From: Clostridia bacterium
Lineage (GTDB): Bacteria > Bacillota > Clostridia > UBA1381
Direction of reading: 5' to 3'
NCBI GenBank assembly: GCA_017621875.1
Contig: JAGASE010000001.1
Span: 1 to 64,000, forward strand
Length of the DNA: 64,000 nucleotides
Part shown: positions 38,451-64,000 of the stretch, one piece after another
Layout of the letters: every line of letters starts with the position of its first letter
Position numbering within the stretch: position 1 is the first letter of the stretch
Program-made: the position numbers and the translations under genes
The notes under the pieces: model-generated
Seen by the model: the letters and a program-made list of their open reading frames with translations, nothing else
What the model was told of the DNA's origin: nothing
Database searches by the model: none

Positions 38451-38492
38451 AAAAAAGCACCTGAGATCAGATAATCCTGATAACAGATGCTT
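38451..38492 (-). terminator. terminator-like hairpin ahead of xis
   Basis: On the minus strand AGCATCTG..ATCAG and CTGAT..CAGGTGCT pair around GATTAT, followed directly by TTTTTT, only 15-20 bases before the xis ribosome binding site. A weak promoter-like pair (TTGGCT, 18 bases, GATTAT) overlaps it, echoing the arrangement in front of int. Confidence 0.7.
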
Positions 38493-38519
38493 TCAGCCAA
38501 TTTTTATTTAATTGTTTTG

Positions 38520-42346: not shown

Positions 42347-42351
42347 AGATG

Positions 42352-42376
42352 TAGGGTATGCGAAGTGCATACCCTA
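42352..42376. terminator. bidirectional terminator
   Basis: TAGGGTATGC and GCATACCCTA form a perfect 10-bp stem around GAAGT, between the convergent GH37-like and response-regulator genes. The T tract is modest. Confidence 0.75.
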
Positions 42377-43081: not shown

Positions 43082-43104
43082 GAATAAATTCGCTCCAATC
43101 CATT

Positions 43105-44583: not shown

Positions 44584-44784
44584 AATTATATCCCTCCATT
44601 ATTTTATATTTTCATTATATAATAAACTCATTTTCTTTGCAAGTCATTTTTGATAAGGTGACAAAAAATCAACCTAATGCGTAACGGGATGACATTTTTT
44701 TCTACTTGTGGAAGGGGGAGTGCAGATGATATAATTTTATTATCAAAATGTTACTGAAATGTAAAAAAAGAGAGGAGAAAAATT
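44584..44784 (+). promoter_or_regulatory. divergent control region of TCS and transporter operon
   Basis: TATAAT at 44730-44735, with only TTGTGG 18 bases upstream, suggests an activator-dependent promoter for the rightward operon. Upstream, TGACAAAAAATCA (about 44659) and TGACATTTTTTTC (about 44692) form spaced repeats of a TGACA half-site, with AGTCATTTTTGAT nearby in the other orientation. These are plausible sites for the response regulator. Confidence 0.4.
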
Positions 44785-46167: not shown

Positions 46168-46172
46168 AGGAC

Positions 46173-47132
46173 GTGAATAAGTTGAAGGGATTATTTTTAA
46201 GGAAAACGACGCTTCAGGGGCATAAAACAATGCCTCTGAAGCGTTCAGTATCAATACAGTGTTATTTATTGTTGGCATTGCCACTGATAGGCTTTTTTGT
46301 TTTTACTATTTATCCGATTATATGGGCATTTTTGAAGGCATTTTTCTATTATGACAAAAATCCGTTTAATACCCGATTTGTAGGTATAGAAAATTTTATA
46401 AACGTATTTACAAAGGATAAATCTTATTGGGCATCGTGGCTCACTACGTTTAAGATTATGTTTATGAAGCTACCATTTGAAATACCGATGGCGTTGGTAT
46501 TTGCTGTAATGCTGAAGAATGTATCAAAAAAATCAGGTCAGTTTTTCCGTGCAGTATTCACTATGCCTAACGTTGTAAGTACAGCGATAATTGGTGTTAT
46601 TTTTACAAATATGTTTGATTATTTCGGATTTATAAATGAGCTGCTGATTAATCTTGGTATATTGAAGGAACCATTTAATTGGTTTGGGAGCACAATCGGC
46701 TCATTGATTGCATTATGTGCAGGCTCATTATGGTCATGTATAGGTGTAAATATATTGTATTTTACAGCAGCACTTACTAATGTGCCGGAGGATGTATATG
46801 AAGCGGCGGAGATTGATGGAGCTAATACATTTGTCAAATTTTTTAAAATAACAATTCCAATGATTGCACCGGTGTTTAGAACTATCCTGCTGCTTGCAAT
46901 CAACGGAACAATACAGGGCGGAGAATACATAATAGCATTTACTAATGGAGCACCGGGAGGCAGCACGCTGACTGTGGGAGCATATATGATAAAAGCCTTT
47001 CTGCCGGGCTTTGCAACCGGTGTACCGAATGTAGGATACGGATGTGCTGCGGCAATAATTACTTCCATCTTGGCAACAATGGTGGCGTTAATATACCAAA
47101 GAGTCAGCATAAAGATGAAGGAGGTATATTGA
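46173..47132 (+). CDS. sugar ABC transporter permease, MalF/LplB-like
   Basis: About 319 residues from GTG 46173 (TTG 46182 is an alternative). A start inside the binding-protein gene is unlikely. Six membrane helices. The EAA coupling loop is EAAEIDGANTFVKFFKITIPM (split EAAEIDGAN / FFKITIPM). No ATPase is encoded in the operon, so a shared MsmX-type ATPase elsewhere must energise the transporter. Confidence 0.88.
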   Translation: MNKLKGLFLRKTTLQGHKTMPLKRSVSIQCYLLLALPLIGFFVFTIYPIIWAFLKAFFYYDKNPFNTRFVGIENFINVFTKDKSYWASWLTTFKIMFMKLPFEIPMALVFAVMLKNVSKKSGQFFRAVFTMPNVVSTAIIGVIFTNMFDYFGFINELLINLGILKEPFNWFGSTIGSLIALCAGSLWSCIGVNILYFTAALTNVPEDVYEAAEIDGANTFVKFFKITIPMIAPVFRTILLLAINGTIQGGEYIIAFTNGAPGGSTLTVGAYMIKAFLPGFATGVPNVGYGCAAAIITSILATMVALIYQRVSIKMKEVY

Positions 47133-47133
47133 T

Positions 47134-47979
47134 ATGAAACAACATATTAAAAAGATAATGCTATACATATTTTTGATTTGCTTAACGGTTATTATGGTGT
47201 TTCCGTTAATATACTGTTTGGCAGCATCACTAAAGACAAATATGGAAATATTGGCTATGCCGGAAAGAGTTTTTCCTAAAAATCCAACCTTTGATAACTA
47301 TGTAGAAATTATGGGGTCAGGAAGCTTTAATGTAGGACCGATGGCGTTTAATAGCTTGTGGTATTCGGCTTCCTCGGTTTTCATAACACTCTTTTTATCT
47401 ATGATTTGCGGATATGTATTTGCAAGAGGAGAGTTCCCTGGAAAAAAAATAATTTTTGCCATTTTTTCAGCACTTATGTTTATTTCTTTAGGCTCTATTA
47501 CAATTTATCCGGTGTTTGATATTTTATCAATATTGCATCTTAATGATTCGTTGTTTGGACTTGTAGTGATGCAGTGCTTTGGAATTCCTGTAGTTAATAT
47601 GTATCTTGTAAAGGGATTTATTGAAGGTCTACCAAGAGAAATTGATGAGGCAGCGAGCATTGATGGGTGTAGCTTTACGGGAACTTTATTTAGAATTATT
47701 GCACCGATGCTAAAGCCTATTCTCATTACTATTGGAATGCTTGCATTTAATGGTTCATGGAATAGCTACTTAATGCCGGCACTGTTCACAATGACAAGAC
47801 CGGATCAACAAACTCTTATTGTCGGCATTATGGAATTTAAGAATAAGGGTGAGGCAGCAACTGCGTGGAATCTTATTCTTGCCGCTACTGCTACAGCATT
47901 GATACCGGTTGTTGCTGTATACACAATAGGGAACAAATATATAACAGAAGCATTTATCGCAGGTGCAGTTAAGGGTTAA
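47134..47979 (+). CDS. sugar ABC transporter permease, MalG/YtcP-like
   Basis: 281 residues with six membrane helices. The EAA loop is EIDEAASIDGCSFTGTLFRI. One base separates it from the previous stop. With the MalF-like partner it forms the channel for imported oligosaccharides. Confidence 0.9.
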   Translation: MKQHIKKIMLYIFLICLTVIMVFPLIYCLAASLKTNMEILAMPERVFPKNPTFDNYVEIMGSGSFNVGPMAFNSLWYSASSVFITLFLSMICGYVFARGEFPGKKIIFAIFSALMFISLGSITIYPVFDILSILHLNDSLFGLVVMQCFGIPVVNMYLVKGFIEGLPREIDEAASIDGCSFTGTLFRIIAPMLKPILITIGMLAFNGSWNSYLMPALFTMTRPDQQTLIVGIMEFKNKGEAATAWNLILAATATALIPVVAVYTIGNKYITEAFIAGAVKG

Positions 47980-48006
47980 AACTTTATACTTAAAGGAGGA
48001 ACATAT

Positions 48007-50172
48007 ATGAAATCTATAAAATTGAAACTAACACTGTTATTTTTGGCTATAGGATGCACTTTTGGAACAAGTGCGGGTGCAAAATATCTTGAGTTTATTC
48101 CTGCACAAGATGGAACTGTGACAAACGGTAGCTTAGTGCAAAACAGTAATATTTCTTATAACAATGAGGCTGAGTCGCTTTTGACAAGCATAGTAAACAC
48201 CAAACAGGAAAAGGTCTCTATTGTTTTTAACGAAACGATTCCGCTGGGAACATATAACTGGTGTAAAATTATGCACAGATATTCTGACGTTTCTTACCAG
48301 AATGAAAACGACTCTGTTGCATACCTTGTCAATGTAATGACAGATGGTTGGGATAATTACTCTGATGTACGTCTTTTATCTTCGGAAAATGAGAATAAAT
48401 GGATAGTGGATTACTTTAATCTTAGCGAGATTTTAGAGGTTTATGATTCAGAGGAAATACAGTTCTTTGTTGCAAATCAGAATAATAGTCCACAAGAAGG
48501 AAAGGTTTCGGCAAAGCACGATATGAAATATATTGTACTTTTTGAAACTGAGGCTGATGCAGAGGCTTATGATTCTTCAATTTTAGGAGTTACTGTTGGA
48601 AAACAGGCTGCTGTAATTGATAAGCTTGCACACACAATTAGTGTTGACGTAGAGCAATTAGCAGGAAGCACCATAGAAACACCTGTTATTAGTTTGATTA
48701 AGGGTGCAAAAGCAGTAATTCCGGAGGATGCTGATTTTTCAAATCCTGTTGAAATTGTTATTACGGATATATCAGGAAAAGAGATTGTATATACCATGAC
48801 GGTACGGACTTCAGATATGTCCTTGCCGGAGGGTACTATGGAGAACTGTATTAACGACCTGAATTCTGCTAATGCAGAAACAATAGCTACTGTTTTTGAA
48901 GAAAACAAAAGCATTTTATATGCTACAAGCTCTGAAATTGAAAATATGAATGAAGAAGAGCTCGGATACCTATATAAGGGAATAATCAATAGCGCAGGAA
49001 GTTTTACAGAGGATAACCTGGTTGCTATTTTAAGAGAATGTGTGAATTATTCAAAGCTGATGACATACGGAGCGACTGTAGAAGGCTTTAATGACGTAAT
49101 AAGTGAACGAAATCTTCCTATTTACATGTCAAATGAATATGAAACTTGGAAAGAATATTTAAGTGATGAAAATAAGTTTTCAGTGCTTAATTTTGCACGT
49201 GGAGAGGAAGGTTATGCAGCCTTTAATGAAACTTTTAAGGAAAAGGCACTTTCTGTAGCTATGACAACAAACAGCGAATGGGAAAAGTGTAAAGCGATTT
49301 TTGAACTGAACTTACAGAGAATCGGCTTTACTCAAGATGAATATGATGCATATATTGGAGCTTTTAATAATAAGGCGATGGTATTTGGTAATGTAGTAAA
49401 TGCTATTGAAGAAGGAAGTGCAGATTATAAAAATCTCTTTATTATGTATGCAACGCAGCAGAAGGATGCTGAACAAGCGAAAAATGACCGTTATACAGGT
49501 GGCGGTGGCTCTGCTTCTGTGTCCGGTGGCAGCGGAGGTGTTATGATAACTGGAAAAGTTCCGGTTACACAAACAAAGGAGCCGGAGAGTGTGCCTGAAC
49601 CGGAAGATAATAATGAAGTAACAGAAAGATTCAAGTTCGAGGATTGCGATAATTATGAGTGGGCTAAGGAAAGTATACAAAATCTGTACAGTGCAGGTAT
49701 TATTTCAGGAATGACAGAAACTACCTACTCTCCGGAAAAGAACGTTACACGTGCTGAATTTATTACAATGGCGATTAAGGCATTAAAGCTTGAGGCTGTA
49801 GCAAAGGAAAGTGCATTTTCGGATTTATCTGAAGACGATTGGTATTTCGGCAGTATTACTGCAGCCTACGAAAATGGACTCATATCAGGAGTGGACGAAA
49901 ACAGAGTTGCACCTAATGAAAATATAAGTCGTCAGGATATTGCAGTGATATGTTACCGGATATTAAAGAATAAGCTTTCGGTTGTTTCTGATAATGTACC
50001 GTCAGATAGTGATGCTGTGGCAGATTATGCTGTTGAAGCTGTAAATTCACTTTTTGGTGCAGGAATTCTTTCGGGATATGAAGGAAATGAGTTCAGACCT
50101 ACACAGTCTGCAACAAGAGCTGAAACAGCCGTTATTATGAATAGGATATATGAGATAGTTAATGCACAATAA
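48007..50172 (+). CDS. SLH-anchored surface protein with recurrent binding-type module
   Basis: 721 residues. A signal peptide (1-25) is followed by a beta-rich module (about 30-185) ending in MKYIVLFETEADAEAYD, then a cadherin-like linker module (about 190-275, SVDVEQ/YTMTV). An alpha-helical part (about 280-500), a Gly/Ser-rich spacer (GGGGSASVSGGSGG) and three SLH domains (about 545-718) follow. SLH domains attach it to the cell wall. The first module is shared with three other proteins of the operon and is probably carbohydrate-binding. AAAGGAGG precedes the ATG. Confidence 0.75.
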   Translation: MKSIKLKLTLLFLAIGCTFGTSAGAKYLEFIPAQDGTVTNGSLVQNSNISYNNEAESLLTSIVNTKQEKVSIVFNETIPLGTYNWCKIMHRYSDVSYQNENDSVAYLVNVMTDGWDNYSDVRLLSSENENKWIVDYFNLSEILEVYDSEEIQFFVANQNNSPQEGKVSAKHDMKYIVLFETEADAEAYDSSILGVTVGKQAAVIDKLAHTISVDVEQLAGSTIETPVISLIKGAKAVIPEDADFSNPVEIVITDISGKEIVYTMTVRTSDMSLPEGTMENCINDLNSANAETIATVFEENKSILYATSSEIENMNEEELGYLYKGIINSAGSFTEDNLVAILRECVNYSKLMTYGATVEGFNDVISERNLPIYMSNEYETWKEYLSDENKFSVLNFARGEEGYAAFNETFKEKALSVAMTTNSEWEKCKAIFELNLQRIGFTQDEYDAYIGAFNNKAMVFGNVVNAIEEGSADYKNLFIMYATQQKDAEQAKNDRYTGGGGSASVSGGSGGVMITGKVPVTQTKEPESVPEPEDNNEVTERFKFEDCDNYEWAKESIQNLYSAGIISGMTETTYSPEKNVTRAEFITMAIKALKLEAVAKESAFSDLSEDDWYFGSITAAYENGLISGVDENRVAPNENISRQDIAVICYRILKNKLSVVSDNVPSDSDAVADYAVEAVNSLFGAGILSGYEGNEFRPTQSATRAETAVIMNRIYEIVNAQ

Positions 50173-50184
50173 AGGAGGTAGACT

Positions 50185-52953
50185 ATGTTAAAAAGGATAA
50201 TAGTTTTATTGCTTTGTTCTCAGCTTTTGGTATCGATGTTACCTGTCTATGCGGAAGATGTGGTAGAACAGTCTGAGGAGGTAACTACGCAGGCTGACGT
50301 GGAAATTCCCTTAATAGGCAAGGAAGCAGATACGCTTACAGCTTTGGGGATTTTCAATGAAAATGATGTGAAATCGGCATATAGTAGGGTAACAAGACTT
50401 GACTTTGCCCGTATGATATACAAATTTTCAGCATTCGGTGTAAGCGATGCTGAGCTTCGCTTTACTGATATTGACGAAAAAGATTCACAATATGTAAATT
50501 ATGTAATAGAGCAAAAGTATATTGAAAATACATCTGATGATGTATTTAGACCGAACGATGAAGTAACAGCATTCCAGTTCATAAAGGGTGTTGTTGCTGA
50601 AATGGGTTATGAGCCACTTGCAAGGATGAAAAACGGCTATATCAATGCAGCTAAGGAAATCGATATTGTAGAGGGCGCACTTGCTTACGATGGCGGAATT
50701 ACATATAAAGAAGTGGCTGAGCTTATGTATAAAGGACTTTTAACCGGTATAGGAAGAATGTCCTTGACTTCCGGCTCGCAGATGTTTGAAATTGCAGATA
50801 AAACCTATATTGAGGATAGGTTTGATGCAGAGATTTTCAAGGGAACAGTTCAGGGAACGGACAGGACAAAGCTTTACGAGACTGTCGGTTCATCACGCAA
50901 CACAGTAATTATTGACTTTGTTGAATATGAAACAGCTATTGATATGTATAATTATTTGGGATACAGGGGTAATTATATTGTACAGAACATTGATGGCTAT
51001 GATACTGTAATTGCATTTTATGATGAAGAAAAACGCACAGATACAAAAGAAATTGCAGATAATCAAATTCTTTCTTTTTCAAATAACCGCTACACCTATG
51101 TCGAGGACGATAAAAAGAAAACAATAGACCTTGATTTGGGTTATAGCTTGATTTATAACGGAAAGTACGTGGACAGCTATTTGCCTCAGGATATGCTTCC
51201 GCAAAACGGAAATGTAAAGCTCATAGATGCAGACAAAAACGGTAAGTTTGAAACTGTTATTATATATGATTATCAAACTAAGGTTGTTGTAAGATACAAT
51301 GAGAACGAGGGCGTGATCTATGACAAAAACGGGGCAGCCTCAGTGAACATTAATGATATAGATACAGTTGACATTATGCAGAATGGTAAACATGTTGATT
51401 CAAGCAGTATCAGGGAAAACTCTATTCTTTCAGTAGCAGTAAGTAAGGATGGAGCATACGCTGCAATTGAAGTATCCGCAGCGATTAAAACCGGAAATAT
51501 TGGAACGGTTTCAAAAGAGGATATGGAATACACAATCGTCTTTGACGGCTCGCTGTATGAAATAAATGAAGTATACTTTGATGCTTATGTAGAACCGGCT
51601 ATACTGATGATCGGGGCTTCTGTAAAGGCATATTTTGACCACTTTGGAAGAGTTGTGTATATGGAGGCGACAACGAGTGACCTGCTTCTCGGATTTCTTA
51701 TGAAAGCTCGATATAATGATGATCAAGAAAGAATGGTTTTTGACATTTATAAGCAGGATAACGAATTGGACAGGAGTCGTTTGGGTGCTGAAAAGATCAA
51801 AATGGACGGAAGGACTCGTAAAAAATATAATGATATTTTAGATGTGCTGAAAAAGGGAGAAGCTGATGTTGCACCGCAAATTATCAGGTATCGGTTAAAT
51901 TCGGAGGGAGAAGTTTGCGAAATTGATACTCCATATAATGATGCATCTATGAGTGTAGATTCGACACCATATCTTGAAAGACGGCCCGGCTCAAAGGAAT
52001 CGAAGGACAGCTTCCGTATAATATATGGTGGTGCATCCTTTGAAGCAAATCCGGAAAATTTCTTGTATAAACCAGCATCATCTACATTTGGCAGGAGAGT
52101 ACGCTATGCAGCAAAATCAGAAAATGTACCTGTGCTTATAAGACCTACGGATAGTGCAAACGTATCTACTGACACAATACATTTTTCAACTGTTAGAGAT
52201 GCTTTTATGATGGACCAGAGCTATAAAACCTTTGATATGTATAGTTATGGACCAAGTACGAGAATTGGTGATTTGTTTGTATATTATAATGATGCTGCGT
52301 TTTCATCTGATGATACTGTAAAGGGAACAACGGTTGCAATGGTAGCTGAAATTCAGGAAATTTATGATGAAGAGCTTGACGAGCCTGTAGCTAAAATAAA
52401 ATTGGCAGGAGAGGGTTCGTCCGTAGAGGCTATTGCAAGAAAAGATAAGTATTGGAAGGAAGTTCTTTCCTTTAATGAAGACGGAAGATACCGACTCGAT
52501 GTAGGTGATGTTGTATGGTACGACAGAGACCAGAATACAACTGAAATAACAGCGATACGTCTTATGTGGGATGCAAGTGAACCGAATCCTCAGGTGGCTT
52601 TAAAGGGTAATGCTGTTAGAGCGTATGGAGATATATTGTCAAATCCCGGTGTAAGATATGTGGACGTGTATGACATAGAGGAAGAATTTGCAATAACTAC
52701 GACAAAGGATTTGTCAACATTTACAGGTACCGAGGCACAGCTTGACCTGACAATGGAAAGAATAGGTCATTTCCCAAATAACTGTGTTCATATATTCGAT
52801 TCTGAGGAAAAGACAGTAAGCGTCAGCGGAATGAGCGGTGCTACAAATTCGTGGAAAGATGTTAAGGACTTTAAACGCTATGGTAAGGACAGAACACGTA
52901 TAATTTGCGTAACCAAGTGGGGCTATGCATTGTGCTTGTTTATTATCAAATAA
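50185..52953 (+). CDS. large SLH-domain surface protein
   Basis: 922 residues. A signal peptide (1-24) is followed by two to three N-terminal SLH repeats (about 45-190; SRVTRLDFARMIYKF, FRPNDEVTAFQFIKG). A long mainly beta region (about 200-920) follows, made of OB- or SH3-like repeats with many acidic residues. No catalytic motif was recognised. The architecture resembles S-layer-type or cell-surface scaffold proteins of Clostridia. AAAGGAGG lies six bases before the ATG, and the gap to the preceding gene is 12 bp. Confidence 0.65.
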   Translation: MLKRIIVLLLCSQLLVSMLPVYAEDVVEQSEEVTTQADVEIPLIGKEADTLTALGIFNENDVKSAYSRVTRLDFARMIYKFSAFGVSDAELRFTDIDEKDSQYVNYVIEQKYIENTSDDVFRPNDEVTAFQFIKGVVAEMGYEPLARMKNGYINAAKEIDIVEGALAYDGGITYKEVAELMYKGLLTGIGRMSLTSGSQMFEIADKTYIEDRFDAEIFKGTVQGTDRTKLYETVGSSRNTVIIDFVEYETAIDMYNYLGYRGNYIVQNIDGYDTVIAFYDEEKRTDTKEIADNQILSFSNNRYTYVEDDKKKTIDLDLGYSLIYNGKYVDSYLPQDMLPQNGNVKLIDADKNGKFETVIIYDYQTKVVVRYNENEGVIYDKNGAASVNINDIDTVDIMQNGKHVDSSSIRENSILSVAVSKDGAYAAIEVSAAIKTGNIGTVSKEDMEYTIVFDGSLYEINEVYFDAYVEPAILMIGASVKAYFDHFGRVVYMEATTSDLLLGFLMKARYNDDQERMVFDIYKQDNELDRSRLGAEKIKMDGRTRKKYNDILDVLKKGEADVAPQIIRYRLNSEGEVCEIDTPYNDASMSVDSTPYLERRPGSKESKDSFRIIYGGASFEANPENFLYKPASSTFGRRVRYAAKSENVPVLIRPTDSANVSTDTIHFSTVRDAFMMDQSYKTFDMYSYGPSTRIGDLFVYYNDAAFSSDDTVKGTTVAMVAEIQEIYDEELDEPVAKIKLAGEGSSVEAIARKDKYWKEVLSFNEDGRYRLDVGDVVWYDRDQNTTEITAIRLMWDASEPNPQVALKGNAVRAYGDILSNPGVRYVDVYDIEEEFAITTTKDLSTFTGTEAQLDLTMERIGHFPNNCVHIFDSEEKTVSVSGMSGATNSWKDVKDFKRYGKDRTRIICVTKWGYALCLFIIK

Positions 52954-52967
52954 TCGGAGGTGCTAAA

Positions 52968-55900
52968 TTGAAAAAGGTAGTAAGTGTAATTTTAGCGACA
53001 ACTATGCTTTTGTCGGGTGCAGTGCATGCACGAAAAAGCTCAATTATAGGCTTTTCGGATAACTATCAGTCTGAAATAAATAGAACAACAGGAGCAGAGA
53101 TTTCACTGTGGCAGGATGCTTTTAGAGGCTGTGCAGTGGTGAATCCAAATTTTACAAAAAAGTCAGGAGTTGTTCTTAATACCGATTTTGGCGTACCGGC
53201 AAATGTATATGTTAAAATCAGATACTATATCACCGGTGAAGTAAATAAAAGCTCTAATTCTATATTGGAAATAAGCGGTAAGGAATATCAGCTGTTTGAT
53301 TATTCAGATAAAGCTTTAGACTGCTGGCATACTGATATAGTATATCTTGAAAATATCAGAAACCCGAAAGAAATGACATTTATCCCTGTCAATAATTCGG
53401 AAAGCTGGACAAGTAATGCAGATATTTATATTGATTATATCGGATTTTTTGAAACTCGTGAGCAGGCTGAAGCCTTCAATGAGGGTGATGATGACGATAA
53501 CGATATAATAGCTGCAAAAAGGACAGTTGTTACTGCTTCGGGAAGCGGAATAACAATATCAGGCTCGGAATATTTGGCGGGTTATACGGATAAATATTTC
53601 CGGCCGGATTACGGCGTAAGCCGTGCTGAAGCGGGTGCAATGATTTCAAGAGTAATAACAGCCGAGGTATCTGAAGAACCGTTGTTAATTTCCGATGTTA
53701 AGGAAGGTGACTGGTATTATGAAGATATTAAGAAGCTTGCAGATAATGGGATAATTCAAAGTGAAGGCAGCTTTGAGCCGACAAAGCCCCTGACACGGCG
53801 TGCACTTGCAGTAATGCTGTGGAATTTAGGGGTTTTAAAGCCATCAAAGGTAAATCAATTTACTGACATAGATATATCTGATGAAAATTACGATATCATC
53901 TGTGCTGCAGCGAACAGTGGCATTATGGTGGGCGATAAAAACGGAGCTTTTATGCCGGAAGAAACTGTGACACGAGCACAGATGGCAGCTGTTTTAAACA
54001 GAGTTTTAATGGTGGATATATCTGCTGCTGCGGAAAAGGTAAATCCATATTCTGACGTATCTTGGCAGCATTGGGCATATCTCGATATTCTTGCATCAAC
54101 CTCAGCAAGCTTATCAGAGGGAGAAGATTCAGTGCAAGGACCTATAGCTGTCGACGGAGTAAAATTTGATGCATTTAACAGTAAAAATTCTGTTTGGGAA
54201 CCGGTTATGCTCAGAAATCAGGAAATTAAGGATGCAGGGCATATCGGGGGCGAAGGAGCGCAGTATCAAACTTATATTACTGTAGATAAAACAGGAAATA
54301 ATCTCGCAACCTTTTCCGATGCAGGACAGATATTTATTAGTAAAGACGGCGGAGCTACATGGGTGCGCGGTGGAAAAAATATGGAAGCTCACACGCTGTC
54401 AACAGGAGAGTTTGACCCAAATAATTCAAATAGAATAATTGGTTGCACCCTAAACGGTACACCATTCAGAACAGGTCAGGCAGCTTTTGATTATACAGGT
54501 AGTGGAATATATCTTTCAGAGGATATGGGAACATCATTTGAGATGGTCATGACATATTGTGATGAACAAGTGAAGCGTCGTGTATCCTTTGCTTGGGATG
54601 CCACCTCATACGATGCAAAAATAGACGGAAGCAGCATATGCTATTTCACGACAAATGTAAAGCAACTTACGGATCCAAAATATATAAATGCTAATGCGAC
54701 TTATGTGGAAAGAGGCTTTAACCAGGGACCAGGATTGTACCGTTCTATGGACGGCGGATACACATGGGAGCTTATAAATGATAAATTTGGCGGTGCTGCA
54801 CCGGCGGTGTGTCCTGCAAATGGATATGTATTCATTGCTGATGTTGATGGTCTTTTCCGTAGCCGTGATAAGGGCGAAACATGGGAAAAGATTTCGGATG
54901 TAAAGACCGGAGGAGTAACAACAATATTCACTTATCCGGAAAATGTTTATGTATGTGACGAAAAGGGACTTTTAGTTTCCACTGATGGAGGCGAAAAGTT
55001 TAACCGAATTACAAGCGGATCATATCCTAACGCTAATACTGACTGTATAAAGGTGTCTCCGGCAAATCCGGACAGGATGGCAGTTGCATATAACCCAAGT
55101 ACTATCAATAGCGTAGGACTCTATTTCTCGCATGATGGCGGTGCAAGCTGGTTTGCGGATGAATATGATGAATCACTGGATTTTTACAGTCATCAACCGC
55201 GTTGGTCTGTTGCAGCATGGCATCCAACTGACGAAAACAAGGTATGGGCGTTTAGTGACTGGGTAGAATCCAGCTCTGATGGTGGTAGAACCTTTAAATG
55301 GGATGCAAATGGGCAAGGCTCAACCTGTGTACAGGCACCAATTATTCCAAACGTATACAATCCAAATATATGGATGGTTACTGCACAGGATTACGGTGGA
55401 GCTGTTACCTTTGATAACGGTGATACATTTATACAAATTCATGGAACTCCTGGCTGGGATGCAAAGGAGGTTCACGGAGGACACACATATGGCGGCTATG
55501 CTGTAGATGAAAATACATGGTTTTTGTGTTGTACAGGCTCATGGGAAGCTAAGAAGCAAAATCTTATTATGACCTTTGATGCCGGAAAAACATGGGAATT
55601 TAAGGGAGAAACAAACGGATTCAGAACACAAAACTGCTTCCAGTCTCCTGTTGACCCTAATGTATTATTTGCAACAGACCTAAGAAGTGATGATGGCGGC
55701 AAGAACTGGCAGAAGATGCCGTTTGATATAAAACATGTGGCTGCCTTTAATCCGGAGGGTCCGGAGCTCTTTGCATTCAGTCAGGATGTAATGTATATTT
55801 CAACCGACACAGGAGCAACCTGGGATAAGCTGTTTGATGCACCGGACTATGACGGTCCGACAAATCTGAATGAGCTTCTTGTGGCAACATATGACCATGA

Positions 55901-56297
55901 AAATGATATTTTGTATTTTGCACAGGCAGATTCTATCAGCAAATATCAGAATGGAACGATTACAAAGCTGAATTGCGACTTGATAAAAAATAAATGGGTA
56001 ACTACTCTTAATGTTGACCCAACTCATCCAAATGTGATTTATGCTTGCGGAACGCCGAATGGAGCAGATGGCTTTAATGACTACAAATACACAAGAGGAA
56101 TTATAAGAAGCTGTGATTATGGTGAAACATGGCAGTGTATAGCATCGGACGTTACTGAGGATACAGTTGTGCCGGAAGGACCGTGTGTAGGAATTATTCC
56201 TGTTTGGGGAGCTTTTGTTCATCCGGAAACCGGATACTTTGTAATAGGCCAGCCGAACTGGGGAGTTGCAAAATTCCCTCCACCGTATGAAAAGTAG
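52968..56297 (+). CDS. SLH-anchored Asp-box beta-propeller protein
   Basis: 1109 residues from a TTG start (CGGAGG seven bases upstream). The frame to 52905 lies inside the previous gene. A signal peptide is followed by a module ending YIDYIGFFETREQAEAF, an acidic linker (DDDDN), three SLH domains (about 195-385) and then about 680 residues with twelve Asp-boxes (SKDGGATW, SMDGGYTW, SRDKGETW, STDTGATW, SCDYGETW and others). This is enough for two seven-bladed propellers as in GH74/sortilin-type folds. The GH74 N-terminal signature is missing, so catalysis is unproven. A surface polysaccharide-binding or -cleaving role is likely. Confidence 0.7.
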   Translation: MKKVVSVILATTMLLSGAVHARKSSIIGFSDNYQSEINRTTGAEISLWQDAFRGCAVVNPNFTKKSGVVLNTDFGVPANVYVKIRYYITGEVNKSSNSILEISGKEYQLFDYSDKALDCWHTDIVYLENIRNPKEMTFIPVNNSESWTSNADIYIDYIGFFETREQAEAFNEGDDDDNDIIAAKRTVVTASGSGITISGSEYLAGYTDKYFRPDYGVSRAEAGAMISRVITAEVSEEPLLISDVKEGDWYYEDIKKLADNGIIQSEGSFEPTKPLTRRALAVMLWNLGVLKPSKVNQFTDIDISDENYDIICAAANSGIMVGDKNGAFMPEETVTRAQMAAVLNRVLMVDISAAAEKVNPYSDVSWQHWAYLDILASTSASLSEGEDSVQGPIAVDGVKFDAFNSKNSVWEPVMLRNQEIKDAGHIGGEGAQYQTYITVDKTGNNLATFSDAGQIFISKDGGATWVRGGKNMEAHTLSTGEFDPNNSNRIIGCTLNGTPFRTGQAAFDYTGSGIYLSEDMGTSFEMVMTYCDEQVKRRVSFAWDATSYDAKIDGSSICYFTTNVKQLTDPKYINANATYVERGFNQGPGLYRSMDGGYTWELINDKFGGAAPAVCPANGYVFIADVDGLFRSRDKGETWEKISDVKTGGVTTIFTYPENVYVCDEKGLLVSTDGGEKFNRITSGSYPNANTDCIKVSPANPDRMAVAYNPSTINSVGLYFSHDGGASWFADEYDESLDFYSHQPRWSVAAWHPTDENKVWAFSDWVESSSDGGRTFKWDANGQGSTCVQAPIIPNVYNPNIWMVTAQDYGGAVTFDNGDTFIQIHGTPGWDAKEVHGGHTYGGYAVDENTWFLCCTGSWEAKKQNLIMTFDAGKTWEFKGETNGFRTQNCFQSPVDPNVLFATDLRSDDGGKNWQKMPFDIKHVAAFNPEGPELFAFSQDVMYISTDTGATWDKLFDAPDYDGPTNLNELLVATYDHENDILYFAQADSISKYQNGTITKLNCDLIKNKWVTTLNVDPTHPNVIYACGTPNGADGFNDYKYTRGIIRSCDYGETWQCIASDVTEDTVVPEGPCVGIIPVWGAFVHPETGYFVIGQPNWGVAKFPPPYEK

Positions 56298-56306
56298 GAG
56301 GATGAA

Positions 56307-59300
56307 ATGAAGAGATTTTATACAAAATGGTTGTCGTTGATAATAACGGCGGCAACCATTATGATAACACCTATTCAACCGGCTATAGCAGAAAACATAG
56401 AAAGTGCAAGGGAAGGCTATTACGAGGTTTATCCAATTTCTGAAAACACTATGCATGGCTCAGCCTTTCCGGTTGGTAAGCAGTCCTCGGGCGTGCCAAG
56501 CTATGATGCATCAACAGATTCAATAAAGGTAGTTACGAGTGCATATACCAAGGATGCAAGAGTACGATATGTGCTAAATACGCCAGTTAGCAAGAGCTAT
56601 AAATATGCAAAGCTGCTATTTAAATATGGCGATATAAATACAACGCATCTGGGATGGACGCTATACCCTAAATACAGTGAATCCGGCTGGCAGCTTTATC
56701 CAACTAAGGTTGTTCAGGGAATTGATAAGGAAAAATGGTCTTCGCAGATAGTGAGCCTTAACACATATGATGAGGAATTTTCAGAAATAGAGCATTTTTA
56801 TGTATGGAACAGCAATTTCCCTAAGCCTGAGGTAGAGCCTGAGGGAAGAACGCATACAGAAAGCTACTTAAAATATATCACATTTTTTGAAAATAAAGAT
56901 GATGCTATCTCGTATGACCTTTCAATTAAAAGGTTTTCTATAAACGGCATTGATGCAGATATTGATAATGTAGCACATCGCATCACATTTAATGTTCAGG
57001 GAAAGAGTAAAAGTATTTTTGGCAATGCGGAGCCTGTGATAACAAAGGACCCGCTTGCTAAAGTGCAGTGTATGAGTGAAATCAACTATGTTGATGACAT
57101 AATTTATAAGGTTACAAATGTATTAGGCGAAGAAATCACATATACAGTAACATTTGACTACGGCTATGCTGCGAAAAAGACGGAGGGAGCATATGTAATT
57201 CCGTTTGATTCTGTGGAGGCGGTAGAGGATGCAGGGCTGTCCATTTACAACTATAATTTGAGTTGGGACGGTCAGGCGGTATTTGACGAAGATGAAAAGG
57301 CTTTAAACCTTACGGTTGGCTGGGCACAAAGAATAAATCTTCGTATGCAAAAGACCATTCCGGGACTTAGTGAATATAAATATGCCAGAGTAAGGTATAA
57401 ATATAACACATTAAGTAGTACAGACTGGTTTGTTAAAAGTGGTATCGGTTTTGGTGGCTACAGCGAGAATATTGCTTTATTCAATGATGGATATGAATGG
57501 AGCTATGGACTTAATAGGTGGCTTTCCGAAATTACCGATATAAGTGCACTGACAGGCACTGCAGCAGAAGAAGGCGGACTTAGGCTATATCTGGCGAATA
57601 CTTCTGTAGGAAATGGCTCGCTTTTAGACTGCACAATCAAGTATGTCGCACTCTTTAAAACGTATGAGGAGGCAGCCGGCTTTGAGGAAGATTTTTCGTA
57701 TGTTAGCATTATGCAGAACGGAAATGCAATCACAGCGAAAATGAATTATCAGGGAACGGCACATTCCCCAAAGCTCATGCTTGCAATTTACAAGGATGGT
57801 AAGCTGGTTTCCGTAGAGGGAACGGATACCGTTTTTGAAGGCAAGATGAGTCTCACACAAAACTCCTTGACACTTGAAGATGGCGAATATCAGGCAAAAG
57901 CTTTTGTATGGCAAAGTGACGGCTCAATCTACCCATACTATGAGTCGGCTTCGGAGCTTGTTACTGCACGCAGCACCGAGTATGATTTGGATAACAGCAG
58001 GGCAAATGAATGGCAAGAAGTACCGGTTGTATCGAATATCCTAAGAAATAAAGGTGTTGAAGGCGGAGAAGGCGGACAAGCCATTCTCTATGTTACAACC
58101 GACACAACAGGTGAAATCGTAATGTCCTTTTCTGACGCGGGACAGATTTTCATTAGTAGTGACGGGGGAGAAACATGGGAACGCGGCGGCAGAAATGTCA
58201 ATGCGGGCTCACTGAGTAATGGAGAGATAGATCCAAACAACTCCAAAAGAGTTGTAGGCTATACCTACAGCGGTGTACCGGCACAAGAGCTGGCATCAGT
58301 TTACAGCGGTACCGGTATCTATATTTCAGAGGATATGGGGTATTCCTTTGAACAAACATTATCCTATTGCGAAAAGGAGGAAGGCTGGCGAGTTGCATTT
58401 GCGTGGGACCCTACCTCATACGATGTAAAAATCGGTGGTAGCAGTATTTGCTATTTTACCACCTGTCAAAGTGAAATTTCCGATGATAAGTTCGGAGACG
58501 CCATAAAACTCCAAATGCAGAAGGGATATAATGAGGGCCCCGGATTTTACCGTTCAACTGACGGAGGTTATAGCTGGGAGCTTGTTAATGAAGCTCTTGG
58601 AGCATCACCGCCGGCGGTATGTCCTAAGGACGGCTCTGTATTTGCCGCAAGTGCTGACGGTCTTTACCGAAGTCGCGACAAGGGTGATACATGGGAAAAG
58701 GTTATTGACGGAAATGTAGGAAGTGTAACTACAATTTTATCAAAGCCTGAAAATGTGTATATAAATGACGACCTGGGCGTACTTATTTCAACAGACTGCG
58801 GCGAAACATTTACAAGGGTTGAAAACAGTACCTTCCCACGCTATCAAAGCTATGAGAGGGGAACTACCAACCTCAAGGTGTCCAATGCTAACCCGAATTA
58901 TATGATGATTTCGTATGACCCATATCAATTCGGAGGCCATATAATGAGTATAGGTTCATACTATTCTCATGATGGTGGTGCTACATGGACAAGAACCGGA
59001 TATGATACTTCGTATGATTTTTATAATCATCAGCCAAGATGGAAAATTACTGCATGGGACCCGGTAAACCCGAATAAGGTCTGGACAAATTCAGACTGGG
59101 TAGAGCTTAGCTGGGACGGGGGAAAGACCTTCCGCTGGAACAACAATGGAAACTGCGGAACATGCATTAATTCACCATTTATACTGAATGTGTATAATCC
59201 GGATAGGTTTTTAATACCGGCACAGGATAATCGTGGTGCATATACCATAGACGGAGGAAAAACCTTTAAAACGCTGTATCTGGATAACAGCCTGATAAAG

Positions 59301-60134
59301 GGTCATAATTACGGCGGCTATATTGTAGATGAAAATACATTTTTCTTTTGCACTACTGGTACATGGGAGTCGCCGGAAAGTGCACTTATAGTAACACATG
59401 ATGGCGGTGAAACCTTTACGGAAGTCGGAACGGTTACATGTGGTGCAAGGAATAATTATTGCTTCCAATCACAGGTAAATCCTGATGTGTATTTTGCCGG
59501 AAATCTGAGAAGTGCAGATGGCGGCTATACATGGGAGGCTCTTCCTGATGAAATTATGTGTGTAGCGACCTATAATCCTTATGGCAATGAGCTATTTGCT
59601 ATCGGTAAAGGCTATGGTGCGGTGTATAAATCCGTTGATACCGGGGCAACATGGGAGAAGCTTTTTGATAGACCACTGATTTATAATAAGTCAAGTGTAT
59701 CGGGAATAAATCTTCTTGCTTATGACGGCGTAAACGATATTTTATATTTCACACAGGCTGATACCATAAGTAAATATAAGGATGGAGTAATAACGAAGCT
59801 AAACTGCGATATTATGAAGGATAAGTGGCGCACGAGCCTTGCGGTAGATCCGAGGTATCCGGAAATTATCTATACAGGCGGAGTGCCGAACGGAACTCAT
59901 GGCGGATTTTCGACTTATGATATGACAAGGTCGATTTTCCGTAGCTGTGACGGAGGAAAAACCTGGCAAACAATATCCTCGGCAGATACAAGAGACTCAA
60001 TAGTAAAAACCGGACCATTGGTAGGGAATTATTATACATGGGCAATGTTTGTTCACCCTGAAACGGGATATGTATATGCAGGAATGCCAAACTACGGACT
60101 TTACAAATTTGCACCTCCATATGAGGTGGAGTAA
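56307..60134 (+). CDS. secreted modular Asp-box beta-propeller protein
   Basis: 1275 residues. The signal peptide is at 1-28. Two binding-type modules end in LKYITFFENKDDAISYD (about 205) and IKYVALFKTYEEAAGFE (about 455). A linker module (SINGIDADIDNVAHRITF, about 210-290) and a PKLMLAIYKDGKLVSVEG module (about 475-560) follow. A C-terminal propeller region (about 585-1270) has twelve Asp-boxes and is collinear with the one in the preceding gene, but there are no SLH domains. It is probably a paralogue released from, or loosely attached to, the cell. It starts 9 bp after the previous stop with GGAGG upstream. Confidence 0.7.
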   Translation: MKRFYTKWLSLIITAATIMITPIQPAIAENIESAREGYYEVYPISENTMHGSAFPVGKQSSGVPSYDASTDSIKVVTSAYTKDARVRYVLNTPVSKSYKYAKLLFKYGDINTTHLGWTLYPKYSESGWQLYPTKVVQGIDKEKWSSQIVSLNTYDEEFSEIEHFYVWNSNFPKPEVEPEGRTHTESYLKYITFFENKDDAISYDLSIKRFSINGIDADIDNVAHRITFNVQGKSKSIFGNAEPVITKDPLAKVQCMSEINYVDDIIYKVTNVLGEEITYTVTFDYGYAAKKTEGAYVIPFDSVEAVEDAGLSIYNYNLSWDGQAVFDEDEKALNLTVGWAQRINLRMQKTIPGLSEYKYARVRYKYNTLSSTDWFVKSGIGFGGYSENIALFNDGYEWSYGLNRWLSEITDISALTGTAAEEGGLRLYLANTSVGNGSLLDCTIKYVALFKTYEEAAGFEEDFSYVSIMQNGNAITAKMNYQGTAHSPKLMLAIYKDGKLVSVEGTDTVFEGKMSLTQNSLTLEDGEYQAKAFVWQSDGSIYPYYESASELVTARSTEYDLDNSRANEWQEVPVVSNILRNKGVEGGEGGQAILYVTTDTTGEIVMSFSDAGQIFISSDGGETWERGGRNVNAGSLSNGEIDPNNSKRVVGYTYSGVPAQELASVYSGTGIYISEDMGYSFEQTLSYCEKEEGWRVAFAWDPTSYDVKIGGSSICYFTTCQSEISDDKFGDAIKLQMQKGYNEGPGFYRSTDGGYSWELVNEALGASPPAVCPKDGSVFAASADGLYRSRDKGDTWEKVIDGNVGSVTTILSKPENVYINDDLGVLISTDCGETFTRVENSTFPRYQSYERGTTNLKVSNANPNYMMISYDPYQFGGHIMSIGSYYSHDGGATWTRTGYDTSYDFYNHQPRWKITAWDPVNPNKVWTNSDWVELSWDGGKTFRWNNNGNCGTCINSPFILNVYNPDRFLIPAQDNRGAYTIDGGKTFKTLYLDNSLIKGHNYGGYIVDENTFFFCTTGTWESPESALIVTHDGGETFTEVGTVTCGARNNYCFQSQVNPDVYFAGNLRSADGGYTWEALPDEIMCVATYNPYGNELFAIGKGYGAVYKSVDTGATWEKLFDRPLIYNKSSVSGINLLAYDGVNDILYFTQADTISKYKDGVITKLNCDIMKDKWRTSLAVDPRYPEIIYTGGVPNGTHGGFSTYDMTRSIFRSCDGGKTWQTISSADTRDSIVKTGPLVGNYYTWAMFVHPETGYVYAGMPNYGLYKFAPPYEVE

Positions 60135-60164
60135 TATATTACAGTTTAGATAGACATTAAAAAC

Positions 60165-60190
60165 TGTTATTAATACCGTAAAACGGTATA
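60165..60190 (+). promoter_or_regulatory. small intercistronic hairpin
   Basis: ATACCGT and ACGGTAT pair around AAA, followed by an A-rich rather than T-rich tail. This is a processing or weak pausing site between the propeller gene and the next gene rather than a full terminator. Confidence 0.4.
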
Positions 60191-60209
60191 AAAATAAGGA
60201 GGAATAAAA

Positions 60210-62015
60210 ATGAAAAAATTAAACAAAGTGTTGTCAACAATTATTGCTCTGGCGATATCGGCATCACAGCTGGTTTGTGTAAATGCAGCAGAAGCAACGA
60301 CACATGGTGACGTTTATGCTATGTACCCGACAGCTGAAAGTACAAAATCGGGACATGATCTATCATTACAAGGTGGTCTTGTTAATGATGCGTGGAGGAT
60401 TGCAGATTTGCAGTATGATGCAAATGTAGATGCAGTACTTTCAAAAAACATTGGAGCAAAGCGTACACCTTTAACATATAAACCGACAAGTGCAATTGAC
60501 AGATCAAAATATAATTATGCAGCTATTCTTCAAAAGCATGTACTATACGCTGGTACAGATAGTATACACTGGACAATACACACAGATTTTCAGAATACAT
60601 TTGAAGCGAAATATACAGAAAATCCGGTTTGGGAAAAAACGGTAATGGACATTGAAGGAGAAACATCTAATTGGAAAACCTTTGACCAGTGGATTGTAGG
60701 TTTTGATAATGAACCTAGTGCTGTAACCTCAGATAACTACACCAAATATATAGCATTCTTTGAAACTGAGGCAGATGCAAATGCATATGACCTGTCAATC
60801 AAGGGCTACAGCATAAATGGTATTCCGGGTGAAGTAGACAATATTGCACACACAATTACCTTTGACATGGGTGGACAAACAGCAGACGTATTCGCAGGTG
60901 CAGCACCTGTTATTACCTCTGACCCACTTGCAACAATTACAACTACAAGTGAAATCAACTATGTTGATAATATTACCTACAATGTAACAAATGTATTAGG
61001 CGAAGAGCTTACATATGTAGTTAAGTTTACTAATTACGATGCAGAAGATACTGCTCCTGAGGGTGCATACATATTTAAGTTCGATACAGCAGCAAAGGTT
61101 GCAACAACAACACTCAAGCAGTATGCGTATGATGTAGAAGGAACGTTTGATCCGCAGCCGTCCTTTGATTCAAATGAAAAGGCACTTAATATCAGGGTTG
61201 CATATGGTCATGGAAATGGCTTTGTAATTGATGAAGAGGTTCCGGAAATCGGAAAATATAAATATGCTAAGCTAAGATATAAATATATAGATGGTACAGC
61301 CTCTGCTACTAATGACTATTCTAATGCTATTTCATTAACTGAAACAGACGGTCGTGGTAAATTTATAAGACAGCATATGGGTCTTGAGATTATGAATGGA
61401 AGAATTTCAGACAGAAGATGGTTTACAGATGTTGTGGATATTTCTGACCTTTCAAAGACGGCAAATAGTGATTCAAGAGTACGCTTTAACTGCTGTGTTA
61501 ATGAGAGTGGAAATGGATCGTATGGTACAACTTTGCTTGTAGATTATATTGCATTGTTTGAGACCTATGAGGATGCTGTGAACTATGAAAGCGATACAGC
61601 TTTTGAAGCTCCTGAAATTAACGCGGTTGATAAAACTACAATGACAGCATCGATGACATATACTGAGGACAGAGCAAATCCGAAGCTTATGCTTGCTATG
61701 TATAAGGACGGCAAGCTGATAGAAACAGCTATGTCAGGAGACATTACTTATGAAATGGACTTTACTCCAATCAGTGAGACATGGATTCCGTATATGGGTG
61801 CCTCAACATGGATTTTGAATAATGAAATGGTTACAGAGCTTACCACAGCAGAAATTGATGTTGCAGATTATGAGGACGGAACATATACTGCTAAGATTTT
61901 AATGCTTGGTGGTACAGAGTCCATTAAACCATACTTTGCAGCTGAAGAATATACAGTTACTGTAGCAACAAGAAATGAAGTGAAGCAGTTTAAGGCTGAA
62001 AAGGTAACAGAATAA
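60210..62015 (+). CDS. secreted protein built only of the recurrent modules
   Basis: 601 residues. A signal peptide (1-26) is followed by the same module order as residues 30-560 of the preceding protein: a module ending TKYIAFFETEADANAYD (about 190), linker SINGIPGEVDNIAHTITF, a second module ending VDYIALFETYEDAVNYE (about 455), then PKLMLAMYKDGKLIETA. There is no propeller, no SLH domain and no catalytic motif. It looks like a soluble binding subunit derived from the large protein by duplication and loss of the propeller. AAGGAGG precedes the ATG. Confidence 0.7.
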   Translation: MKKLNKVLSTIIALAISASQLVCVNAAEATTHGDVYAMYPTAESTKSGHDLSLQGGLVNDAWRIADLQYDANVDAVLSKNIGAKRTPLTYKPTSAIDRSKYNYAAILQKHVLYAGTDSIHWTIHTDFQNTFEAKYTENPVWEKTVMDIEGETSNWKTFDQWIVGFDNEPSAVTSDNYTKYIAFFETEADANAYDLSIKGYSINGIPGEVDNIAHTITFDMGGQTADVFAGAAPVITSDPLATITTTSEINYVDNITYNVTNVLGEELTYVVKFTNYDAEDTAPEGAYIFKFDTAAKVATTTLKQYAYDVEGTFDPQPSFDSNEKALNIRVAYGHGNGFVIDEEVPEIGKYKYAKLRYKYIDGTASATNDYSNAISLTETDGRGKFIRQHMGLEIMNGRISDRRWFTDVVDISDLSKTANSDSRVRFNCCVNESGNGSYGTTLLVDYIALFETYEDAVNYESDTAFEAPEINAVDKTTMTASMTYTEDRANPKLMLAMYKDGKLIETAMSGDITYEMDFTPISETWIPYMGASTWILNNEMVTELTTAEIDVADYEDGTYTAKILMLGGTESIKPYFAAEEYTVTVATRNEVKQFKAEKVTE

Positions 62016-62019: not shown

Positions 62020-62130
62020 GGTATGGGAGCATTTTGCTCCCATGCTTATACAATGTATTTAAAACAGTGCTTTAATATTCGGGGGCTGTGAAGGCTTGCT
62101 TTGTTGAAGCACTGATTTAAGTATATTGGG
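62020..62130 (+). other. intercistronic hairpins before the rhamnosidase gene
   Basis: ATGGGAGC/GCTCCCAT around ATTTT (about 62022-62043) has no T tract. AGTGCTT/AAGCACT (about 62065 and 62108) encloses about 35 bases. They may set the relative expression of the downstream gene. Confidence 0.4.
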
Positions 62131-62143
62131 GGAGGAGACTTTA

Positions 62144-64000
62144 ATGCAAAATGCAAATTTACAAAATGCAAAATGGGTATCGGCAAATAAGGAATATTGT
62201 TCTCCGCTTTTGCGTAAGGAATTTGAATTACATGATATAGAAAAAGCAACAATCACTATTGCGGTACTGGGATTTTTTGAGGGGTACATAAACGGAAAAA
62301 GTATAAGCGAGGATATGTTTTTGCCGCTGTATACAGATTTCCACAAAAGGCCGCCGATTGACTATTGCGGGCATATGTTTGAGGAAGAGCTTGCATACCG
62401 TCTTTATTGCCCTGTTTATGATATTACGCATCTGCTTTCAGACGGAATAAATACTATAGGATTTATTCTTGCACCGGGAAGATACGAAAGACCTCACGAT
62501 AAATGCGGCTATGGTTATGTTAAAATGGCATTCTGCATTGAGGCTCTTCATAAGGATGGAACAAAGGAATATATTGTTTCAGATGAGGATATGAAAAGAA
62601 GAGAGGGTTTTGTAAAAAAATGCGATATTTTAAACGGTGAAACTATTGATTTTACCGCATATGACGATAATTGGACTATGGCAGGCTTTGATACTTCTAA
62701 GTGGCAGCCGGTATTCGTTGAAGAAACTCCCGATACAAGACTTTTTGTGCAGGATTGCCCCGCAGACAGAGTAATCAGACATAATAAATGCACTCTTGTG
62801 ACCGAAAAGGACGGCGTAAGGATTTATGATGTGGGCGAGATTATGTCCGGCTATCCGATTTTCGCAGTAAAAGAGGGGTATAAAGGTGAAATTAATATCC
62901 GTTACTGTGAGCTTTTGAATGAGGATGGTAGGCTTAATGAGGATAATATTTATTTGCAGCATACCGATATTATGACAGACGGAAAACAACGCCTTGTTCA
63001 TTCGCGGTTTACGTGGATGTGCTTTAGGTATTTTGAGGTAAGAGGCGAGGTAGAGCCTGTTGACTGTGTGGTTATTCACAGCGATATAGCGGTAAGCTCG
63101 GCTTTTTCATGCGATGATGAAATACTGAACTGGTTATATGATGCATATATAAGAACACAGCTTGCAAATATGCATTGCGGCATACCTTCGGACTGTCCGC
63201 ATATTGAAAGGAAGGGCTATACAGGCGACGGACAGCTTACCTGTAAGGCGGCTATGACTCTGCTTGATGCACAGAAGTTCTACAAAAAATGGATTTATGA
63301 CATTTCGGATTGTCAAGACAGGAAAACAGGGCATGTCCAATATACAGCTCCGTTTTTGACTGCCGGAGGCGGACCGGGAGGTTGGGGCGGTGCAATCGTT
63401 TTCGTGCCTTTTGAATATTACAGACAGTATAAGGATGTTTCCATATTAAAGGAGCTTTATCCGCAAATGCTTCGCTACTTCGATTTTATGGAGGCACATA
63501 GTGAAAATGAGCTTGTTACATCAGATATTGAAGGCTGCTGGTGCCTGGGTGATTGGTGTGTGCCGGAACAGCTTATTTTGAATGAAAAGGACGGTATTAA
63601 AATACCACCTGCATATGTTAATACATATTTTTACATTAAGGCAATGCAGATTGTTTTGAAAATTGAAGAAATAATCGGTGAGCAGACGGGATATTTGAAT
63701 GAAAGAATTGAAAGAAAAAAGGCGGCACTTGTACGGAATTATTTTGATAATGAAACAGGGAATTTTTGCGAAAATCTTCAGGGAGGTAATGTTTTTGCCG
63801 TTGATTTAGGTATCGGAGACCAACGTACACTTTCAAATATGGTTGAGCATTACAGAAAAATCGGACATTATGATACAGGCATTTTCGGTACATATATCGT
63901 GACGCACCTTTTGTTTGAAAAGGGCTTTGCAGATGTTGCACGTTCGCTTCTGACTTCAAAGGATGTGGTATCCTTTTATAATCAGAAAAATACAGGGGCG
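62144..64000 (+). CDS. GH78 alpha-L-rhamnosidase, runs off the window
   Basis: The first 619 codons of a longer gene, open to the last base. GGGGGAGGAG precedes the ATG. There is no signal peptide, so it is cytoplasmic. After N-terminal beta-sandwich domains (about 1-310), the catalytic (alpha/alpha)6 domain begins with IPSDCPHIERKGYTGDGQL (about 348-366), the GH78 signature (CPxRxExxGWxGDAQ), and continues with GGPGGWGGAIVFVPFEYYRQY, split. It would remove L-rhamnose from imported oligosaccharides of pectin (rhamnogalacturonan), plant glycosides or bacterial glycans. Confidence 0.9.
   Translation, partial: MQNANLQNAKWVSANKEYCSPLLRKEFELHDIEKATITIAVLGFFEGYINGKSISEDMFLPLYTDFHKRPPIDYCGHMFEEELAYRLYCPVYDITHLLSDGINTIGFILAPGRYERPHDKCGYGYVKMAFCIEALHKDGTKEYIVSDEDMKRREGFVKKCDILNGETIDFTAYDDNWTMAGFDTSKWQPVFVEETPDTRLFVQDCPADRVIRHNKCTLVTEKDGVRIYDVGEIMSGYPIFAVKEGYKGEINIRYCELLNEDGRLNEDNIYLQHTDIMTDGKQRLVHSRFTWMCFRYFEVRGEVEPVDCVVIHSDIAVSSAFSCDDEILNWLYDAYIRTQLANMHCGIPSDCPHIERKGYTGDGQLTCKAAMTLLDAQKFYKKWIYDISDCQDRKTGHVQYTAPFLTAGGGPGGWGGAIVFVPFEYYRQYKDVSILKELYPQMLRYFDFMEAHSENELVTSDIEGCWCLGDWCVPEQLILNEKDGIKIPPAYVNTYFYIKAMQIVLKIEEIIGEQTGYLNERIERKKAALVRNYFDNETGNFCENLQGGNVFAVDLGIGDQRTLSNMVEHYRKIGHYDTGIFGTYIVTHLLFEKGFADVARSLLTSKDVVSFYNQKNTGA

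What the first reader, a model, noticed from the sequence alone, without database searches (positions are those of the whole stretch)
48007..62015. Recurrent undescribed module ending in YIxFFETxxxAxAY across four secreted proteins
Six copies are visible: one each in the proteins at 48007 and 52968 and two each in those at 56307 and 60210. Each is a beta-rich unit of about 150 residues with a conserved IRYKY/LRYKY-like strand and an end motif such as KYIAFFETEADANAYD. The copies are followed, in three of the four proteins, by a linker unit with INGIxxxxDNxAHxITF. I recognise no named family. In this setting a carbohydrate-binding function is the simplest reading, and it could be a new CBM type.
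Basis: partly seen in the sequence, partly recalled or inferred. Interest (0 to 1): 0.7.

Follow-up and report, generated by a model that had tools for sequence, protein, structure and literature searches.

The report
Undescribed clostridial glycan-binding-like module family
Four secreted proteins of a sugar-polymer-digesting gene cluster share a sheet-like protein module that no database searched here names; its predicted shape and its partners say it is probably a new family of the 'sugar-gripping' modules bacteria use to hold glycans while cutting them.

Summary
Six copies of one divergent module of 150-180 residues are present at the stated places: one each in the proteins at 48007 and 52968, two each in those at 56307 and 60210. 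A profile built only from other genomes finds all six and nothing else in the window. The family matches no Pfam, NCBIfam or PDB sequence. Structure models of two copies (pLDDT 78) both give the CBM beta-sandwich, close to CBM86 and CBM29. The module belongs to a family found in 19 of 391 sampled genomes of the class, often with nine or more copies per genome. It occurs there in anchored single-module proteins or beside GH123, GH99-like and ricin-lectin domains. Here it sits on two GH74-like propellers, one with SLH repeats, and on two non-catalytic proteins. All lie in one operon behind a sugar ABC transporter, on a low-GC island beside an integrase. Best reading: a new family of CBM-like, probably glycan-binding modules. 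The 'linker unit' is DUF5018-like. Binding and ligand are untested, and CAZy families without a solved structure could not be searched. New member of a known kind; moderate interest.

The parts
44785..47979 (+). ABC transporter: solute-binding protein (44785-46167) and two permeases (46149-47132, 47134-47979)
   Evidence: SBP_bac_1 6e-18 and BPD_transp_1 2e-16; gene gaps -19, 1 and 27 nt to the module genes. The second permease (47134) was assigned from its sequence, not scanned.
48007..50172 (+). Protein A, 721 aa: signal-peptide-like start, module A1, DUF5018-like unit, three SLH repeats at the C-terminus
   Evidence: SLH 6e-34; module
48079..48582 (+). module copy A1
48574..48840 (+). DUF5018-like unit of protein A (loose INGI..DN.AH.ITF)
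   Evidence: alignment with L004, which matches DUF5018 at 6e-15
50185..52953 (+). Protein B, 922 aa, one SLH repeat, no module; same operon
   Evidence: SLH 3e-4; gaps of 12 and 14 nt
52968..56297 (+). Protein C, 1109 aa: module C1, three SLH repeats, GH74-like Asp-box propeller region (54162-56294)
53034..53492 (+). module copy C1 (most divergent)
56307..60134 (+). Protein D, 1275 aa: modules D1 and D2, DUF5018-like unit between them, Ig-like tail, GH74-like propeller region (58038-60131)
56397..56927 (+). module copy D1 (structure modelled)
56919..57185 (+). DUF5018-like unit of protein D
57177..57695 (+). module copy D2
60210..62015 (+). Protein E, 601 aa: modules E1 and E2, DUF5018-like unit between, Ig-like tail; no catalytic domain and no SLH recognised
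60294..60800 (+). module copy E1
60792..61070 (+). DUF5018-like unit of protein E
   Evidence: BLAST to L004 E 0.003
61050..61598 (+). module copy E2 (structure modelled)
62126..64000 (+). alpha-L-rhamnosidase (GH78-type), runs past the window end
   Evidence: Bac_rhamnosid6H 8e-63 on L044

Best explanation
The six units are members of an undescribed family of CBM-like beta-sandwich modules that most likely bind a polysaccharide. Protein A (module plus SLH) and protein C (module plus SLH plus GH74-like propeller) display binding and cutting sites on the cell surface. Protein D adds a second GH74-like propeller with two modules. Protein E, two modules and no enzyme, acts as a dedicated glycan-binding protein, much like the surface glycan-binding proteins of Bacteroidota. 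Released oligosaccharides would be taken up by the ABC transporter of the same operon and finished by the intracellular glycosidases next to it. Shown here: the family, the predicted fold, the gene and domain context, and no match to named families. Inferred: glycan binding, surface display through SLH, and enzyme activity. The ligand is a guess: a decorated beta-glucan such as xyloglucan (from the GH74-like propellers), or a rhamnose- and galactose-containing glycan (from the GH78 and melibiase-like neighbours).
For: Six related copies, no control hits. AlphaFold2 models of D1 (pLDDT 77.9, pTM 0.78) and E2 (78.0, 0.79) both match CBMs. D1: CBM86 Z 12.3, rmsd 2.7 over 128 residues; CBM29 Z 11.9; CBM11 Z 11.1. 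E2: CBM29 Z 12.3, rmsd 2.8 over 139; CBM27 Z 11.7; CBM22 Z 11.4. Fused to GH74-like propellers in C and D (profile best PDB hit 2cn3 xyloglucanase 3e-32). In other genomes the modules share proteins with GH123 catalytic domains (3 proteins), GH99-like WbsX domains (6, three of them in this same genome), ricin lectin, GDSL and SLH. Transporter, GH78, GH43, melibiase-like and trehalase-like genes adjacent; operon spacing.
Against: No binding data. The same fold serves non-sugar roles: CIA30/NDUFAF1 complex I assembly factor is Z 12.0 and 13.0, and flagellar sheath protein FlaA1 is Z 10.2. Several host proteins carry no recognisable enzyme, and the window copies lack the DP and W.G motifs of the wider family.
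Confidence: 0.72

Rival explanations
1. The module is a structural spacer or protein-protein interaction beta-sandwich of cell-surface proteins. It uses the CBM-like fold without binding sugar, as CIA30 and FlaA1 do.
For: CIA30-type chains rank level with the best CBMs (Z 12.0 and 13.0). Many family members are single-module anchored proteins with no enzyme. No conserved aromatic ligand platform was identified.
Against: A spacer does not need proteins made almost only of modules behind a sugar transporter (protein E). Repeated fusion to glycosidase-type domains in different genomes is typical of CBMs.
Confidence: 0.2
2. The module is a far-diverged branch of an already numbered CAZy CBM family (such as CBM86 or CBM29), so not a new family.
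For: Best Foldseek hit of D1 is CBM86 of Roseburia intestinalis, also a clostridial protein (E 8e-5); CBM29 is best among CBMs for E2.
Against: Identity in the structural alignments is only 6-11%. Several CBM families tie in Z. A 29-row profile finds no CBM chain in the PDB even at E 10 and nothing in Pfam or NCBIfam. CAZy families without solved structure were not searchable.
Confidence: 0.15
3. The modules bind the bacterium's own wall polymer or exopolysaccharide and anchor the proteins, rather than capturing a substrate.
For: D and E carry modules but no SLH, so they may need another way to stay on the cell; many homologues are surface-anchored.
Against: A and C have SLH repeats and still carry the module. 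The whole operon is a catabolic cluster with a transporter and glycosidases.
Confidence: 0.1

Closest known systems
CBM86 (xylan-binding module, Roseburia intestinalis, PDB 6SGF)
   Same: Predicted beta-sandwich superposes on 128 residues at 2.7 A, Z 12.3; Clostridia; part of extracellular glycan degradation
   Different: 6% identity in the alignment; no profile match to its sequence at E up to 10; partner here is a GH74-like propeller and not a xylanase; ligand unknown
CBM29 (Piromyces equi, PDB 1GWK/1W8Z)
   Same: Fold: Z 11.9 (D1) and 12.3 (E2) over 137-139 residues
   Different: 7-10% identity, fungal, no profile match
Surface glycan-binding proteins (SGBPs) of Bacteroidota
   Same: Non-catalytic, multi-module secreted protein (E) in a glycan uptake operon; works-like comparison only
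   Different: Pfam SGBP_B_XBD reached only E 0.015 in 2 of 29 members; here an SLH surface and ABC uptake, not SusCD
GH74 xyloglucanases (e.g. PDB 2CN3)
   Same: Partner domain of C and D: best PDB matches of the propeller profile are GH74 (3e-32), clearly above Ycf48 and sortilin; two Asp invariant in six homologues
   Different: Matches are single blades out of register; single sequence C has no PDB hit; activity and family membership unproven
CBM112 (PMC13357471)
   Same: A beta-sandwich module newly named a CBM family after binding assays and family analysis; shows what proof is needed
   Different: Described there as mostly Bacteroidota and inserted in GH26; its sequences were not compared here

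Membership tests
CBM (as a functional class) | discrete non-catalytic module appended to a carbohydrate-active enzyme | tested here: met
   C and D carry it next to GH74-like propellers; homologues next to GH123 and GH99-like domains
CBM (as a functional class) | CBM-type fold | tested here: met
   models of D1 and E2 match many CBM families at Z 10-12; prediction only, pLDDT 78
CBM (as a functional class) | binds carbohydrate | not testable with these tools
   needs purified protein
CBM86 | sequence similarity to the family (CAZy families are sequence-based) | tested here: not met
   29-row profile against all PDB chain sequences, 6SGF included: no match at E <= 10
CBM29, 11, 22, 27, 30, 15, 4 | sequence similarity to the family | tested here: not met
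   same search of PDB chains; Pfam member scan
CAZy CBM families without solved structure | sequence similarity to the family | not tested
   CAZy/dbCAN not available here
any Pfam or NCBIfam family (module) | score over the curated cut-off | tested here: not met
   29 members scanned, nothing significant
DUF5018 (linker unit) | Pfam PF16410 match | tested here: inconclusive
   window units score nothing alone; their homologue L004 in the same genome matches at 6e-15 and aligns through the whole unit
GH74 (propellers of C and D) | sequence similarity to GH74 enzymes | tested here: met
   6-row profile hits 2cn3 at 3e-32, then other GH74
GH74 (propellers of C and D) | catalytic aspartate pair | tested here: inconclusive
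   Asp33 and Asp397 of the D propeller fragment are invariant in six homologues, but alignments to GH74 are out of register

The most novel reading that the evidence does not exclude
A new, large CBM family of Clostridia. In genomes that have it, it is expanded to many copies and forms a Gram-positive counterpart of surface glycan-binding proteins: modules on SLH-, LPXTG- or membrane-anchored proteins that hold varied glycans near glycosidases and ABC transporters.
Probability: 0.55. Interest if true: 0.6.

Novelty: new member of a known kind. Interest (0 to 1): 0.42.

Why it matters
CBM families are a main handle for guessing the substrate of uncultured glycan degraders. An unnamed family present in many copies in some clostridial genomes hides glycan-binding proteins from annotation. 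A profile now exists that finds it, and proteins such as E are small enough for a direct binding test.

Tried and rejected
CBM86 sequence from clostridial GH10 xylanases: about 20 GH10 proteins with long upstream regions were collected, and none carries a convincing relative of the module (best E 0.009, short). Weak Pfam hit SGBP_B_XBD (E 0.015 in 2 of 29 members) was not used as evidence, being about what 29 scans give by chance. The idea that the module is confined to this locus was rejected: the six-row profile finds only these six in the genome, but the 29-row profile also finds related modules in three GH99-like proteins elsewhere in it. Linker as a second new family: rejected, DUF5018-like.

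Full report
OBSERVATION. The four genes are real, long and consecutive: protein A 48007-50172 (721 aa), C 52968-56297 (1109 aa, TTG start), D 56307-60134 (1275 aa), E 60210-62015 (601 aa), with protein B 50185-52953 between A and C. Each has a good ribosome-binding site and a signal-peptide-like start. The end motif is found once in A and C and twice in D and E. The modules align over their whole length. BLASTP E-values run from 2e-26 (D2/E2) to about 1e-7 for most A1/D1/E1/E2 pairs, while C1 is only weakly linked. To exclude circularity, a profile was made only from sequences of other genomes; it finds all six modules, E 2.3e-4 to 5.7e-11, and nothing else, with no hit in shuffled or reversed frames. 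The INGI..DN.AH.ITF unit follows only the first module in A, D and E.

THE FAMILY. No Pfam or NCBIfam model matches the module in the window proteins or in 29 family members. No PDB chain sequence matches its profile at E 1; at E 10 the only hit is an unrelated IgA receptor fragment, E 1.5. A profile of the six window copies finds only these six in the 2.0-Mb genome, one other genome among 95 of the order and 13 of 391 in the class, own genome included. A 29-row profile built with those finds 19 of 391 genomes of the class, many reaching the scoring limit of nine matches, but only 3 of 398 in a wide sample of the phylum. Homologues are small proteins with a signal peptide or lipoprotein start, one or two modules, a Pro/Thr-rich stretch and a membrane anchor, or large multidomain proteins. 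Of 21 large host proteins scanned, three carry a GH123 catalytic domain, six a WbsX (GH99-like) domain with a copper-amine-oxidase N-domain, and single ones a ricin-type lectin, a GDSL domain, a sub-threshold dockerin or SLH repeats. Three of the WbsX proteins are in this same genome, with two modules each.

FOLD. AlphaFold2 models of D1 (pLDDT 77.9, pTM 0.78) and, with a different alignment, E2 (78.0, 0.79) are beta-sandwiches. D1: Foldseek best CBM86 (E 8e-5); VIA-align CBM86 Z 12.3 (2.7 A, 128 residues), CIA30 Z 12.0, CBM29 Z 11.9, CBM11 Z 11.1, then CBM30, CBM15 and CBM4. E2: CIA30 Z 13.0, CBM29 Z 12.3 (2.8 A, 139 residues), CBM27 Z 11.7, CBM22 Z 11.4. The fold class is thus well supported, and it is the class of many CBMs. 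No single CBM family stands out, identities are 6-14%, and non-sugar proteins share the fold.

PARTNERS. C and D share a propeller region at 54% identity. A six-row profile of it hits GH74 xyloglucanases best (2cn3 3e-32, then other GH74), above Ycf48 and sortilin. The matches are single blades in shifted register, so GH74-like is the right wording. Two aspartates (in SDAGQ/TDVGG and in QDxxG) are invariant in six homologues. A and C carry SLH repeats. The linker unit aligns with a domain at L004 that matches DUF5018 at 6e-15.

CONTEXT. The genes form one operon with a sugar-type ABC transporter (gaps -19 to 75 nt). Around it lie a two-component system, a melibiase-like protein, two trehalase-like glycosidases, a GH78 rhamnosidase, a glycyl-radical enzyme with activase, GH43, an AraC-type regulator and a second ABC transporter. 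GC falls from 0.43-0.46 to 0.34-0.38 at about 36 kb, where a tyrosine integrase lies next to ychF. Neither the module (E 1e-4) nor the propeller is found in eight other genomes of the genus, most of them incomplete, so the cluster is probably an acquired island.

INTERPRETATION. Most likely the modules hold a polysaccharide at the cell surface while GH74-like enzymes cut it. Shown: family, predicted fold, fusions and operon. Inferred: binding, display, activity and ligand. The main rival is a structural use of the same fold. A CBM paper of 2026 (PMC13357471, CBM112) shows the kind of proof that is missing here: binding assays on the isolated module plus family analysis.

VERDICT. It is a new family of a familiar kind, useful and directly testable, not a new principle.

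Noticed in passing
36000-52000: GC drops from 0.43-0.46 to 0.34-0.38 at a tyrosine integrase gene (36944-38131, minus strand) beside the housekeeping gene ychF. The glycan cluster downstream is missing from eight same-genus genomes, most incomplete: likely an acquired island.
   Followed up: partly
L044:6695-9446 (just past the window): Glycyl-radical enzyme (PFL-like) with its radical-SAM activase inside a rhamnosidase-containing cluster; could be a diol dehydratase for rhamnose use (not tested).
   Followed up: no
41123-42343 and L044:4282-5538: Two trehalase-like (GH37/GH63-type) glycosidases flank the operon; their role in a glycan cluster is unclear.
   Followed up: no
50185-52953: Protein B, 922 aa, sits in the operon with one weak SLH repeat and otherwise no recognised domain.
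   Followed up: no
54162-56294 and 58038-60131: GH74-like propellers form a rare divergent branch: clear relatives (E below 1e-60) in 3 of 391 genomes of the class besides this one, two of them adjacent in G153. They may be a new subfamily or family.
   Followed up: partly
G000 contigs C13, C23, C10 (L075, L076, L077): Three GH99-like (WbsX) proteins of the same genome each carry two distant relatives of the module around a copper-amine-oxidase N-domain.
   Followed up: partly
15229-17328 (minus strand): YcdB/YcdC-repeat protein with an SLH repeat.
   Followed up: no
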